DNA of 64,000 nt, from the NCBI RefSeq assembly GCF_023206215.1, contig NZ_CP065800.1, positions 434,001 to 498,000 of the forward strand. Reading direction: 5' to 3'. Of the stretch, positions 17,833 through 55,543 are shown piece by piece. Source of the DNA: Butyrivibrio fibrisolvens (lineage in GTDB: Bacteria; Bacillota; Clostridia; Lachnospirales; Lachnospiraceae). The notes below the pieces were generated by a model that made no database searches, was not told the DNA's origin, and saw only the letters and a list, made by a program, of their open reading frames with translations. The stretch's first letter is position 1, and every line of letters starts with the position of its first letter. The position numbers and the translations under genes are program-made.

Positions 17833-19119
17833 TTACCTTCTGTCTGGGGCATTATCATTATTGTTTTTTCGTTTTACTTCATACTCGATCAGCACATCTG
17901 TATCAAAAGCTCTTATCTCTGGATCAGACAATCTTATACTCTCTTTCATTTTGGTAATCCCGATATCTGCTACAGGTGTATATATACCTATACCTCCTAC
18001 TATCTGCGCACCAACAAATGTGTATATCTTGTTGACTTTGCCGGCTTCAAGGAATGCTGCATTTATATGCTTGCCGCCTTCTACCAGTATCCCGTCTATA
18101 TGGAGCAGGCCAAGCTGACGCAAAAGGTCATCAACACTTATATGCTCGCCTTCATCTACATGCCTATTCTTAGATGCATCCGTAAGATCATCCTGACCAC
18201 ATCTTACTTCACCATTAGAAGCTACTCCCAGCGCAGTAACTCCCATGGACTTAAGCGCAGATATCTTTTTTCTAATAGCATCTGAATATTCCAGATCATC
18301 GGCCCCATCATGAAGATACTTGTCCAGGCAGGCAACTATTAATGGCGCCTCATTTACAGTCTTTACCAGATTGCAGTCAAGGGGGATCTTCAAGTGACTA
18401 TCCATGACAATCCTTATAGGATTTCTGGTTCCCGGAAGCCGGCAGGTCAGCATCGGATCATCAGTAAGAACAGTACCTATCCCTACAAGAATACCTGTGT
18501 AGTAGTTCCTAAGCTCATGGACGTATGCCCTGGCACTTTCTCCTGTGATCCATTTGGAATCCCCAAAGTCTGTAGCGATCCTGCCATCAGCTGTCATCGC
18601 GTACTTCAAGGCCACATATGGTTCTTTGCCAGTAATATAATGGAAGAAAACAGGGTTTATAGCATCGCACTCATCCTTTAGGTAATCTTCTACTACTTCT
18701 ATCCCATGCTCTCTTAGAAAGGCTGTGCCCTTACCACCTACAAGAGGGTTAGGATCTCTTGAGCCTATAACTACTCTCTCTATCCCCGCTTCTACTATGG
18801 CAAGTGTGCAGGGAGGCTGTTTGCCATAATGACAGCACGGCTCAAGAGTCACATATATAGTCCCACCCTGAGCGCTTTCCTTAAGATGCCTTATAGCATC
18901 CCTTTCAGCATGAAGATCGCCATATCTGTGATGATAGCCTTCACCTATAACTCTGCCATCCTTGACTATCACTGCTCCTACCATGGGATTGGGATTAGTA
19001 CGTCCCTTGGCTGATAGTGCCAGTTCGATAGCTCGCCTCATATATTGCGGATCAAGATCAGATTCTATTGAGGAATTAACATACTGCGAAGCAGTGCATA
19101 CTAGGTTGTTTTGATTCAA
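17833..19119 (-). CDS. ribD: Bifunctional pyrimidine deaminase / reductase
   Basis: A 428-residue protein, first gene of the rib operon. The deaminase domain (about 27-170) has the zinc ligands in HAERDAI and EPCCHYGKQPPC; the reductase domain follows (KYAMTADGRIATDFGDSKWI). An insert around residues 310-335 (ASNGEVRCGQDDLTDASKN) is unusual. The start is a TTG at 19119 preceded by AAGGGGGAACAA, with an N-terminal extension of about 26 residues before the usual start. The ribosome binding site can pair with CCCC at 19138-19141. Confidence 0.94.
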   Translation of the reverse strand: MNQNNLVCTASQYVNSSIESDLDPQYMRRAIELALSAKGRTNPNPMVGAVIVKDGRVIGEGYHHRYGDLHAERDAIRHLKESAQGGTIYVTLEPCCHYGKQPPCTLAIVEAGIERVVIGSRDPNPLVGGKGTAFLREHGIEVVEDYLKDECDAINPVFFHYITGKEPYVALKYAMTADGRIATDFGDSKWITGESARAYVHELRNYYTGILVGIGTVLTDDPMLTCRLPGTRNPIRIVMDSHLKIPLDCNLVKTVNEAPLIVACLDKYLHDGADDLEYSDAIRKKISALKSMGVTALGVASNGEVRCGQDDLTDASKNRHVDEGEHISVDDLLRQLGLLHIDGILVEGGKHINAAFLEAGKVNKIYTFVGAQIVGGIGIYTPVADIGITKMKESIRLSDPEIRAFDTDVLIEYEVKRKNNNDNAPDRR

Positions 19120-19270: not shown

Positions 19271-19429
19271 CACCATCTTAAAGATTCATATACTATATCT
19301 GTATTTATATCAATAAATAGTAATTATGATAATACTACTAATCCGATAATAAGTAGCTACATACAATAATAGCTATATCATCAATATTGATATAATCTTA
19401 TAACTATAGATACAAGTACGAAGGTAATC

Positions 19430-19537
19430 CTACTTCTCTCATCCAGACTTTACTGTCGGCCCCGGAATCTCACCAGGTCATGCCATAAGGCTCGCGGGCT
19501 ATACCGCCGGTTGGGAATCGCACCCAGCCCCGAAGTT
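19430..19537 (-). promoter_or_regulatory. FMN riboswitch (RFN element)
   Basis: On the minus strand the RFN consensus is clear: CTTCGGGGC, then GGTGCGATTCCCAACCGGCGGTA in two pieces, GCCCGCGAGCC, GACCTGGTGAGATTCC, GGGGCCGACAGT and AAGTCTGGATGAGAGAAG. Basal pairing ACTTC with GAAGT closes the aptamer. It controls ribD-ribE-ribBA-ribH: FMN binding should favour the terminator at 19240-19270. Confidence 0.96.
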
Positions 19538-19620
19538 TATTATTAGTATTTAATTTTATGTAAGCATAAGCTTACGCCACATAGTATAGATTAGTTTTTA
19601 TATACTTGTCAAATACATTT

Positions 19621-53197: not shown

Positions 53198-53701
53198 TTA
53201 GAAATCCCTGAGCTTATCATCATCTGTAAGCTCGGTATTCTCAATTTTTCTGATTATCACGTCATAGTTATAATCCTTGCTTATAACTATATTGACGCGG
53301 TCTCCTACCTTATGTCCCATCAGGGCTTTACCAAGCGGAGATTCCACGCTTATGGTTCCTTTAAGGGAGTCCGCTCTTATGGTAGTGACGATCTTATACA
53401 CTTCCTCGACATCATCTTCCTCGACATAGACAGTTACAGTCTTGTTCATGCCTACCTGATCATCACTTGAGTCATCATCAATGATCTTGGCTGTCTTGAT
53501 CATCCTTTCAAGAAAGCGTATGCGGCTCTCGTTCTGGTTCTTGGCCCTCTTGGCTGCATAGTACTCAAAGTTCTCGGACAGATCGCCCTGAGCCCTTGCC
53601 TCTTTGACATCCTCAAGAAGCTCTTTCCTTATATTGATCTTGCGGTTGTCAATCTCAGCCTGCATATCTTCTATGTCTTTTTTAGTCAGTTCGTTGTGCA
53701 T
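53198..53701 (-). CDS. greA: Transcription elongation factor GreA
   Basis: A 167-residue protein. An N-terminal coiled coil carries the catalytic tip motif GDLSENFEYYAAK (about 39-51), which inserts into the RNA polymerase secondary channel to stimulate cleavage of backtracked RNA. The C-terminal FKBP-like domain ends in ISKDYNYDVIIRKIE. Slightly longer than E. coli GreA. Confidence 0.94.
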   Translation of the reverse strand: MHNELTKKDIEDMQAEIDNRKINIRKELLEDVKEARAQGDLSENFEYYAAKRAKNQNESRIRFLERMIKTAKIIDDDSSDDQVGMNKTVTVYVEEDDVEEVYKIVTTIRADSLKGTISVESPLGKALMGHKVGDRVNIVISKDYNYDVIIRKIENTELTDDDKLRDF

Positions 53702-53901
53702 ATAAAAAACCTCACTTATAATTCCTGCTTATTCAATTTTATGATAAGAAAAAAACCATTTCAACAGGATAAAAAATACTTTAATAACTGAAAAACTAAA
53801 GAAATTTTAAACCACAGATCTTATGAGAAAATATCTGATATTGCTTGGATCATCATCTACAAACAGCCTGATATAGGGGATGTCATGGAATGCTGATTTT
53901 C

Positions 53902-53930
53902 TTGACGTTTTTGCAATAAATCTTTATTAT
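53902..53930 (+). promoter_or_regulatory. Promoter of the Mn2+ riboswitch transcript
   Basis: TTGACG (53902-53907) and TATTAT (53925-53930) are spaced by exactly 17 bases. The predicted start near 53937 coincides with the first base of riboswitch helix P1. Confidence 0.8.
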
Positions 53931-53937
53931 ATAGGGA

Positions 53938-54117
53938 GTAAAAGGGAGTAGCTGATCTATATATTGGCAAGGTATATAGATTTCCGGTATTCGTCAGCAC
54001 AATGGCCGGCAAAGGTCATTCGGAACCGGATATAACGCAGCAGATTTTTGTCATTTATTTTATGGCAAGAGACGACAAATATTATTCTGCTGATATCCAC
54101 AAAAGCAAGACTTTTAC
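53938..54117 (+). promoter_or_regulatory. yybP-ykoY (manganese) riboswitch
   Basis: The two conserved loops are recognisable: AAAGGGAGTAGC (53941-53952) at the 5' end and TCGTCAGCAC ... GGCCGG ... ACCGG, with the 3' signature AGCAAGACTTTTAC (54104-54117). P1 is GTAAAAG (53938-53944) with CTTTTAC (54111-54117). Members of this class bind Mn2+ (with Mg2+) and switch on Mn2+ efflux genes. A long variable region (about 54030-54100) separates the two legs. Confidence 0.8.
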
Positions 54118-54203
54118 CATGTAACTTTAGTAGATGACACTTCTATAATTGTCATTTGCTTACCGCTATATGCGGTCAACCACATGGCAAGGTCTTTTTT
54201 TAT
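54107..54203 (+). terminator. Riboswitch-controlled terminator
   Basis: AAGAC and CCATGT (54107-54122) can pair with ACATGG and GTCTT (54182-54196), followed by TTTTTTTATTTT. The 5' arm includes the 3' strand of riboswitch P1, so ligand-stabilised P1 and the terminator exclude each other: metal binding should permit read-through. Confidence 0.75.
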
Positions 54204-54232
54204 TTTGCCAAAATTCATTCAAAGGAGACAAA

Positions 54233-55543
54233 ATGTTAACATCCAAAACCATCGCGATAGCACTTTTTGTACTTATGTATGTACTCATGGTGCTATTACC
54301 AAAGAAAAGAGCTGTTGTTGCTCTCTCAACTGCAGCAATCTATGTAATCCTTACACTTATAGGAGTAGGCGGTGATCCTATCCTTCCAATCACGCAGGTA
54401 CCCAGTGCTATCGACTGGAACATACTTATGATGCTGGTAGGAACTATGGTTATCGTAGACTATTTCATCGAATCCAAGATGCCCAATGTTATTGCTGAGT
54501 GGCTTCTAAGACTTGCCCCTAATGTAATGTGGGTTACAATTCTCATGTCACTTTTCTCAGGTATCATCTCAGCTTTCATCGACAATGTAGCTACAGTACT
54601 TATGGTAGCACCTGTAGGACTTGCTATCTGTAAGAAGCTGAACATATCTCCTGTATCCATGATCATCTGTATCGCAGTATCCTCAAACCTTCAGGGCGCT
54701 GCAACACTTGTTGGTGATACTACATCTATCATGCTTGCAGGCGCTGCCGGCATGAACTTCAATGACTTCTTCGTATTCCACGGAAAAGCCGGTATCTTCT
54801 TTGCAGTTGAGCTTGGTGCTCTTCTTACTGTTCCGATCATGATGTTCCTCTTCCGCAAGGACAAAGAATCTGTTACATCAACAGAGCACACAGTTGTAAC
54901 TGACTATGTTCCGACTATTACAATGCTGGGACACGTGGTACTGCTTATCATCGCATCCTTCATTCCGGAAGGGATGAAGCCGGAGACAACCAATGGTATC
55001 ATCTGCCTTGTATGCGGCGTCCTCACTGTAGTATGGGAGATTGCCAAGCAGAAGAGCACAGATGGAATGTGGCACTCACTTAAGGCTATGGACTGGGATA
55101 CAATGCTCCTTCTTACAGGTCTGTTCTGCGTCATAGCAGGTATCACCAATGTTGGTGTCATAGATGATCTTGCAACTATGATCTCCAAGGCAGGTAGCAG
55201 CAACGTATTCATTTTGTATTCAATTGTAGTATGGGGTTCTGTAGCTATATCTGCTTTTATAGACAACATACCTTACGTTGCAACAATGCTCCCTATTCTG
55301 GGTTCTGTCGCAGCAACACTTAATGTAGATGCTAACTTCCTGTATTTCGGTCTTCTCATAGGAGCTACTCTTGGTGGTAACATTACTCCTATCGGAGCAT
55401 CTGCCAATATCGCAGGTGTTGGTATGCTTAGAAAAGAAGGTTATGAAGTTAAGTTCAGAGACTTCTTCAAGATTGGTATTCCGTTTACACTTACAGCTGT
55501 TATTACAGGTTATCTCTTCATTTGGTTTGTATGGAAGCCATGA
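54233..55543 (+). CDS. SLC13 / ArsB-NhaD type ion transporter, candidate Mn2+ efflux
   Basis: A 436-residue protein with about 11 membrane segments in two inverted halves. GTMVIVDYFIESKMPN, SAFIDNVATVLMVAPV and the repeat ISAFIDNIPYVATMLP in the second half are the hallmark re-entrant hairpins of the ion-transporter superfamily (ArsB, NhaD, SLC13). The start at 54233 follows AAAGGAGAC; a longer frame upstream has no site and runs into the riboswitch terminator. Control by a yybP-ykoY riboswitch implies a job in manganese homeostasis, which would be unusual for this family. Confidence 0.85.
   Translation: MLTSKTIAIALFVLMYVLMVLLPKKRAVVALSTAAIYVILTLIGVGGDPILPITQVPSAIDWNILMMLVGTMVIVDYFIESKMPNVIAEWLLRLAPNVMWVTILMSLFSGIISAFIDNVATVLMVAPVGLAICKKLNISPVSMIICIAVSSNLQGAATLVGDTTSIMLAGAAGMNFNDFFVFHGKAGIFFAVELGALLTVPIMMFLFRKDKESVTSTEHTVVTDYVPTITMLGHVVLLIIASFIPEGMKPETTNGIICLVCGVLTVVWEIAKQKSTDGMWHSLKAMDWDTMLLLTGLFCVIAGITNVGVIDDLATMISKAGSSNVFILYSIVVWGSVAISAFIDNIPYVATMLPILGSVAATLNVDANFLYFGLLIGATLGGNITPIGASANIAGVGMLRKEGYEVKFRDFFKIGIPFTLTAVITGYLFIWFVWKP

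What the first reader, a model, noticed from the sequence alone, without database searches (positions are those of the whole stretch)
53902..55543. Manganese riboswitch controlling an ArsB/NhaD/SLC13-type permease
A consensus promoter (17-base spacer) starts transcription at a recognisable yybP-ykoY aptamer. Its P1 3' strand is part of a following intrinsic terminator, and the next gene, with its own strong ribosome binding site, encodes an ion-transporter-superfamily permease. Known genes under this riboswitch are Mn2+ exporters or their relatives (MntP, TerC/YkoY, UPF0016, P-type ATPases). A member of the ArsB/NhaD/SLC13 fold here would point to a new class of Mn2+ (or Mn2+-coupled) efflux protein.
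Basis: partly seen in the sequence, partly recalled or inferred. Interest (0 to 1): 0.8.

Follow-up and report, generated by a model that had tools for sequence, protein, structure and literature searches.

The report
Manganese-type RNA switch before ArsB-like permease
In a rumen bacterium and many of its relatives, an RNA switch of the manganese-sensing class sits in front of a membrane-transporter gene that databases call an arsenic, sodium or SLC13-type carrier, which suggests that this protein may really pump out manganese.

Summary
Window 53938-54117 is a divergent yybP-ykoY (Mn2+) aptamer whose P1 3' strand (54111-54117) lies inside an intrinsic terminator (54107-54196); a 436-aa CitMHS/ArsB-like permease follows (54233-55543). 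Rfam RF00080 does not see it. Model R1, built only from leaders of other orthologues, finds the held-out window (42.2 bits) and the same genome's mntP leader (45.2 bits). Model R2, built only from mntP, GDT1 and P-type-ATPase leaders, finds the window and 23 of 80 permease loci, the same 23 as R1, and nothing else in 600 kb. Among 37 motif-selected permease leaders (33 distinct), 37 keep the Mn-sensing GUCA and 37 the P1/terminator overlap. In 116 related genomes R1 hits precede this permease, CaCA exchangers, P-type ATPases, MntP and GDT1, among others. Permease and CaCA gene co-occur in only 3 of 72 genus genomes, but the tree-corrected test is not significant. The predicted fold is ArsB/INDY-like. 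Best reading: a Mn2+-induced ON switch driving a Mn2+ exporter of the ion-transporter superfamily. Ligand and transport are inferred, not shown.

The parts
53902..53930 (+). sigma-70-type promoter, TTGACG-17-TATTAT
   Evidence: 10 of 12 matches; not beyond chance alone
53938..54117 (+). yybP-ykoY-class (Mn2+) aptamer with enlarged P4 arm
   Evidence: R2 match 53938-54117; R1 match 53938-54051
53938..53944 (+). P1 5' strand GTAAAAG
   Evidence: sequence, covarying helix 1 of A1
53945..53951 (+). L1 motif GGAGTAG
   Evidence: sequence; invariant in 20 of 20 rows of A1, rows chosen for it
53954..53982 (+). P2 hairpin
   Evidence: minimum-energy fold
53983..54030 (+). P3 arm with L3 GTCA; the adenosine at 53996 is the counterpart of Mn-sensing A41 of L. 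lactis
   Evidence: fold, core motif, A41 role from passages
54038..54092 (+). enlarged P4 arm
   Evidence: minimum-energy fold
54111..54117 (+). P1 3' strand CTTTTAC, shared with the terminator
   Evidence: sequence, R2 match end, terminator fold
54107..54203 (+). intrinsic terminator (hairpin 54107-54196 and T-run)
   Evidence: -31.6 kcal/mol, z -5.7
54221..54227 (+). ribosome binding site AAAGGAG
   Evidence: sequence
54233..55543 (+). ArsB/NhaD/SLC13-superfamily permease, 436 aa

Best explanation
The leader is a Mn2+-sensing riboswitch of the yybP-ykoY class that works as a transcriptional ON switch. Without Mn2+ the strand 54107-54117 folds into the terminator and transcription stops. With Mn2+ docked between loops L1 and L3, helix P1 (53938-53944 with 54111-54117) is held, the terminator cannot form and the permease is made. 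The permease is an elevator-type transporter of the ArsB/NhaD/SLC13 superfamily that most likely expels Mn2+ (perhaps also Ca2+), coupled to H+ or Na+. Shown here by sequence comparison: the aptamer class, its conserved core, the P1/terminator overlap, the gene family and the breadth of the pairing. Inferred: Mn2+ binding, and the substrate, direction and coupling of transport. The confidence given is for the whole chain; for the riboswitch class alone it is about 0.95, for Mn2+ as ligand about 0.85.
For: Held-out window and held-out mntP leader found by R1. R2, made only from MntP/GDT1/P-type-ATPase leaders, finds the window and the same 23 of 80 permease loci, nothing else at E<=1 in 600 kb. 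Covariation: 89.2% of cells paired against 69.6% shuffled (0 of 500), 24 of 28 pairs with double changes. Mn-sensing GUCA in 37 of 37 and P1/terminator overlap in 37 of 37 motif-selected permease leaders, 33 distinct. Of 79 R1 hits in 116 genomes, 29 precede the permease, 16 CaCA, 6 P-type ATPase, 4 MntP, 4 GDT1 (4 of the 29 by coordinates). A CaCA protein under this riboswitch class was shown to export Mn in Bordetella pertussis (PMC8546581, passages). Permease and CaCA gene both present in only 3 of 72 genus genomes, one of the CaCA copies a fragment and one interrupted (Fisher p 1e-5). Three invariant aspartates D117, D162, D344 in 49 of 49 family members, two of them at the places of the anion-binding serines of INDY.
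Against: RF00080 itself does not match the leader. 57 of 80 orthologue loci (one of them with only 52 upstream bases) and 32 of 61 orthologues in the 116 genomes show no R1 hit. MntP is present beside the permease in many genomes, so another exporter is usually there already. The exclusion of permease and CaCA is not significant once relatedness is considered. Related D-S and D-N hairpin motifs occur in OCA2-like paralogues without an R1 hit. R1 hits also precede genes not obviously tied to Mn export: SPFH 8, Na/Pi 2, OAD-beta 2, MBOAT 2.
Confidence: 0.6

Rival explanations
1. The RNA senses Mn2+ but the permease moves something else that matters under Mn stress: H+ or Na+ as an NhaD-like antiporter, Ca2+, citrate or phosphate.
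For: R1 hits also precede Na/Pi cotransporter, OAD-beta and SPFH genes. The fold holds Na+/anion symporters and the neutral-metalloid pump ArsB. MntP co-occurs. Public names include NhaD and arsenic transporter.
Against: The most frequent other partners are cation exporters: CaCA, P-type ATPase, MntP, GDT1. The SNT serines that bind anions in INDY are aspartates here. NhaD, ArsB and DASS curated cut-offs are all missed.
Confidence: 0.27
2. The aptamer is a yybP-ykoY variant with another ligand (for example Ca2+ or another divalent ion), and the permease exports that ion.
For: Sherlock and Breaker expect yybP variants with changed ligands (PMC7266159, passage). The L3 loop of permease, CaCA and some ATPase leaders (GUCANNACG) differs in length from that of most MntP and GDT1 leaders (GUCAACAUAC). 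A Streptococcus member is reported to bind Ca2+ as well (PMC9495176, passage).
Against: The Mn-selective adenosine is kept, and the L3 length equals that of the L. lactis Mn2+ aptamer.
Confidence: 0.12
3. The leader is only a terminator region with a chance resemblance to the aptamer.
For: No Rfam match; the promoter match alone is at chance level.
Against: Reciprocal covariance models, covariation and a conserved core in 33 distinct leaders.
Confidence: 0.01

Closest known systems
yybP-ykoY Mn2+ riboswitch (RF00080), L. lactis yoaB type
   Same: L1 GGAGUAG, L3 UCA with the Mn-sensing adenosine, P1 shared with a terminator, ON-switch logic
   Different: scores below Rfam detection, with a large P4 arm in the window; new partner gene
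ArsB arsenite efflux pump (10tp)
   Same: closest solved fold by Z (41.9); Asn111 and Asn337 match N118 and N345, Asp148 matches D162 (roles)
   Different: Asp112 and Ser380 are V119 and A389 here, and D117 and D344 are added; NCBIfam ArsB cut-off missed (58.5 of 457 bits)
SLC13/DASS symporters (VcINDY, NaCT, NaS1)
   Same: same superfamily fold
   Different: both SNT motifs are D-N-V and D-N-I; DASS cut-off missed (64.5 of 198.6 bits)
CaCA Mn exporter BP3410 under a yybP-ykoY riboswitch (PMC8546581, passages)
   Same: a transporter of a family not named for Mn, recognised through this riboswitch class
   Different: unrelated fold; transport was tested there, not here
MntP and GDT1/UPF0016 exporters
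   Same: their leaders in the same order belong to the same RNA class
   Different: different protein families

Membership tests
yybP-ykoY riboswitch class | L1 GGGAGUAG and L3 GUCA with the invariable Mn-sensing adenosine | tested here: met
   GUCA in 37 of 37 leaders incl. the window; the leaders were chosen for the L1 motif, so L1 is no independent test
yybP-ykoY riboswitch class | helices P1, P2, P3, P4 around a four-way junction | tested here: inconclusive
   five covarying helices for P1, P2 and P3; P4 is only a single-sequence fold in the window
yybP-ykoY riboswitch class | homology with leaders of known Mn exporters | tested here: met
   R1 finds the mntP leader; R2 from MntP/GDT1/P-type-ATPase leaders finds the window and 23 of 80 permease loci
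yybP-ykoY riboswitch class | Rfam RF00080 gathering score | tested here: not met
   a detection threshold, missed also by the own mntP leader (25 of 45 bits). I therefore file the leader as a divergent clade of the class, outside Rfam's present family limits
yybP-ykoY riboswitch class | Mn2+ binding | not testable with these tools
   needs in-line probing or transcription assays
Pfam CitMHS / ion-transporter superfamily | profile over the curated cut-off and the two-repeat fold | tested here: met
   193.2 of 31.9 bits; fold matches over the full length
ArsB arsenite pump | curated ArsB score and the full As(OH)3 pocket | tested here: not met
   NCBIfam 58.5 of 457 bits; Asp112 and Ser380 not kept; Pfam ArsB is passed (41.2 of 22.2 bits)
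SLC13/DASS anion symporter | two SNT motifs and the DASS score | tested here: not met
   D-N-V and D-N-I instead; 64.5 of 198.6 bits
NhaD Na+/H+ antiporter | NCBIfam NhaD_1 score | tested here: not met
   37 of 80 bits
Mn2+ exporter (functional class) | Mn2+ efflux activity | not testable with these tools
   inferred from the regulation and the gene distribution only

The most novel reading that the evidence does not exclude
The permease is the first Mn2+ exporter of the ArsB/NhaD/SLC13 superfamily: a Clostridia family now named arsenic transporter, NhaD or SLC13 permease, which stands in for the CaCA Mn exporter in much of this genus and is switched on by Mn2+ through an RNA clade that Rfam's present model does not see.
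Probability: 0.5. Interest if true: 0.75.

Novelty: new variant of a known kind. Interest (0 to 1): 0.66.

Why it matters
[quoted passage not shown] It would correct the annotation of a common transporter family, and it shows that Rfam's Mn riboswitch model misses a clade in this group of rumen and gut bacteria, so inference of gene function from riboswitches there is incomplete.

Tried and rejected
Rfam at the gathering threshold and at E<=10: nothing relevant; SNORA69, Yfr21, InvR and Flavo-1 rows judged chance. Other ion riboswitches: no other riboswitch class at E<=10 in 53700-54300; in 20 orthologue loci only two tRNAs reach a gathering score. The permease as a replacement of MntP: rejected, MntP matches in 45 of 61 genomes and often stands in genomes that have the permease. 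The Asp-Asn hairpin motif as a Mn2+ signature: rejected as specific, because OCA2-like paralogues carry related motifs. One origin of riboswitch-bearing permeases: not supported, the label needs 17 changes, at least 14 on starred branches; it is somewhat clustered all the same (17 of 500 shuffles as low). Exclusion of permease and CaCA: strong in raw counts (Fisher p 1e-5) but with independent pairs on a GuaA tree no significance (0 pairs the same way, 1.7 the other way on average, median p 0.5). That test held 59 of the 72 genus genomes: 11 had no GuaA match (G029, G067) had partial ones that I did not fetch. SSRC10 (RF02617) as a family in the own genome: no hit. Dambach 2015 and Price 2015 could not be read, so I cannot say that their gene lists lack this family.

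Rows left out of counts, and limits. In some searches I classified 76 of 80 places (79 hits plus the own mntP leader); the 4 left out (G006, G012, G022, G029) lie just upstream of permease genes by the coordinates and are added to make 29. The downstream gene was taken as the longest frame starting within 900 bases, so a few assignments may be wrong. One search used stricter filters, which lose weak matches; the whole-genome search with R1 did not list the own mntP leader although R1 scores it 45.2 bits. Part of the R1 training leaders lie in the 80 loci and match by construction; R2 was not trained on any of them. L110 was too short for the tree; L033 has only 52 upstream bases. The 37 leaders were chosen among 110 loci for the GGGAGTAG/GGAAGTAG motif and include copies of one genome from two collections (33 distinct aptamers).

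Full report
What is in the sequence. The window lies in a 4.45 Mb genome whose nearest named relatives are Butyrivibrio. At 53902-53930 is a TTGACG-17-TATTAT promoter match (not beyond chance by itself). Transcription from about 53937 would begin at GTAAAAG-GGAGTAG (53938-53951). The leader 53935-54110 folds more stably than its shuffles (z -3.8). At 54105-54117 GCAAGA-CTTTTAC closes P1, and the same strand opens a terminator hairpin, 54107-54196, followed by a T-run (-31.6 kcal/mol, z -5.7). A ribosome site (54221-54227) and the 436-aa frame 54233-55543 follow. The neighbours are a GreA/GreB-family gene on the other strand upstream and, downstream on the other strand, a frame that looks like a class II aldolase (name recalled, from no call).

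Rfam fails. RF00080 gives no hit in the window at its gathering score, none at E<=10 in 53700-54300, none over the cut-off in the whole genome and none over the cut-off in 20 orthologue loci. Its one hit at E<=0.001 in the genome, at 25 bits, is a leader in front of mntP (Pfam Mntp 126.9 bits). That leader has the same blocks: GAGGGAGTAGC, GTCAACATAC, GCGAGAC.

Family-built models. Upstream of the permease orthologues I collected 37 leaders by the GGGAGTAG-type motif (33 distinct aptamers). An alignment of 20 of them, without the window and without mntP, gave 89.2% of pair cells formed against 69.6% when shuffled (0 of 500) and changes on both sides in 24 of 28 pairs; slid controls give 38-43%. 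Model R1 then found, in the window plus the mntP locus, exactly two matches: the mntP leader at 45.2 bits (E 3.7e-11) and the window at 42.2 bits (E 2.8e-10). In 80 named orthologue loci (537 kb) it matched 23, each upstream and on the same strand, and nothing else at E<=1; some of these were training rows. Conversely, R2 was built only from 15 leaders of MntP (5), GDT1 (4) and P-type ATPase (6) genes. It recovered the same 23 loci and the window, this time with the P1 3' end at 54117 (31.4 bits, E 8e-5), and nothing else at E<=1 in 600 kb; over the whole genome its best match is the mntP leader (a training row, 72.2 bits), then 1382191-1382294 (42.1 bits) and the window (29.9 bits, E 1.4e-3). 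The R2 training leaders had been found by R1, except that the mntP one was found independently by RF00080.

What else carries this RNA. R1 in 116 related genomes hit 63 genomes at 79 places (strict filters). By the first long frame downstream (4 of the 29 by coordinates): this permease 29, CaCA exchanger 16, SPFH/flotillin 8, P-type ATPase 6, MntP 4 (plus the own mntP leader), GDT1 4, Na/Pi 2, OAD-beta 2, MBOAT 2, no match to my reference set 5, no frame 1. R1 was trained on permease leaders, so these shares lean towards the permease.

Sensor chemistry and switch. Crystal work places Mn2+ on phosphates of L1 and L3 and on N7 of one invariable adenosine (A41 in L. lactis, in UCA41AUUC), which gives Mn2+ selectivity (passages of PMC6754395, and PMC9190785). 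GTCA is in 37 of 37 permease leaders and at an invariant place in 20 of 20 rows of A1, and the form UCANNAC has the length of the L. lactis loop. Most MntP and GDT1 leaders have the longer GUCAACAUAC, a difference that I cannot weigh. In 37 of 37 permease leaders the P1 3' strand pairs in a hairpin before a T-run, also in 4 of 4 GDT1, 5 of 6 P-type ATPase, 15 of 16 CaCA, 3 of 5 MntP, 6 of 8 SPFH, 1 of 2 Na/Pi, 1 of 2 OAD-beta and 2 of 2 MBOAT leaders. The mechanism is thus a Mn2+-stabilised P1 that blocks the terminator, as reported for L. lactis.

Distribution. On a tree of 80 proteins the riboswitch label (24 rows) lies on both sides of the deepest fork of the midpoint-rooted tree and needs 17 changes, at least 14 on starred branches: an old or repeatedly gained link with many losses. 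R1 hits stand before 29 of 61 orthologues of the 116 genomes. MntP matches in 45 of 61 genomes and co-occurs with the permease. The CaCA gene behaves differently: among 72 genus genomes the permease is in 57 and a CaCA homologue in 12, with both in only 3 (G012, G013, G026); in G012 the CaCA match covers 82 of 324 residues and in G013 it is interrupted by a stop (Fisher p 1e-5 with all three kept). Six genomes have neither. On a GuaA tree of 61 rows (59 of the genus in the test) no independent pair goes the same way, 1.7 go the opposite way on average and the rest do not differ; median p 0.5. So replacement is suggested, not shown. In B. pertussis a CaCA protein under this riboswitch class was shown to export Mn (PMC8546581, passages).

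Known or new. In the paper library yybP-ykoY occurs in 91 papers (40 listed); with SLC13 in none; Mn2+, riboswitch, exporter and CitMHS together in none. The lists with citrate (18 papers, 16 listed) and antiporter (15) were seen as listings, with passages read in PMC10448178, PMC8546581, PMC9337991, PMC11477304, PMC9495176 and PMC7266159; the passages that I saw do not name this family. The two founding papers are not held, so earlier mention there is not excluded.

Verdict. The leader is a divergent member of the Mn2+-riboswitch class and a transcriptional ON switch (about 0.95 for the class, 0.85 for Mn2+ as ligand). The permease is most likely a Mn2+ exporter (about 0.6 for the whole chain), a new partner for this RNA and a candidate new exporter family.

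Noticed in passing
L094:2840-2966, L104:2838-2959: Rfam RF02617 SSRC10 (Streptococcus sRNA 10) aligns under threshold (about 29 bits, E 0.2) with the whole aptamer and terminator of two permease leaders. SSRC10 may itself be a Mn riboswitch leader filed as an sRNA.
   Followed up: partly
G000:C1:1382191-1382294 (L114, L171); similar leaders in L174, L177, L182: A third R1/R2 hit in this genome (44.5 and 42.1 bits) precedes an MBOAT acyltransferase gene; its L3 reads TTCAGGT instead of GTCA, as in three hits of G011 and G072: perhaps a variant with another ligand.
   Followed up: no
L150, L155, L160, L163, L166, L168, L170, L176: Eight R1 hits precede SPFH/flotillin-like genes; six of them have a differently spaced L3 such as GTCAACCG or GTCAGCCG. 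What a Mn-class riboswitch does before flotillins is unexplained.
   Followed up: no
L156, L181 (OAD-beta); L151, L167 (Na/Pi): R1 hits before Na+-pump decarboxylase beta subunits and Na/Pi cotransporters.
   Followed up: no
G093:C167:403-495 and 949-1046 (L134, L146): Two R1 hits lie about 450 bases apart on one contig and strand, one of them before a CaCA gene.
   Followed up: no
window 19427-19541, - strand: Ordinary FMN riboswitch (108.9 bits) upstream of a frame at 17833-19041 that looks like ribD (name recalled).
   Followed up: no
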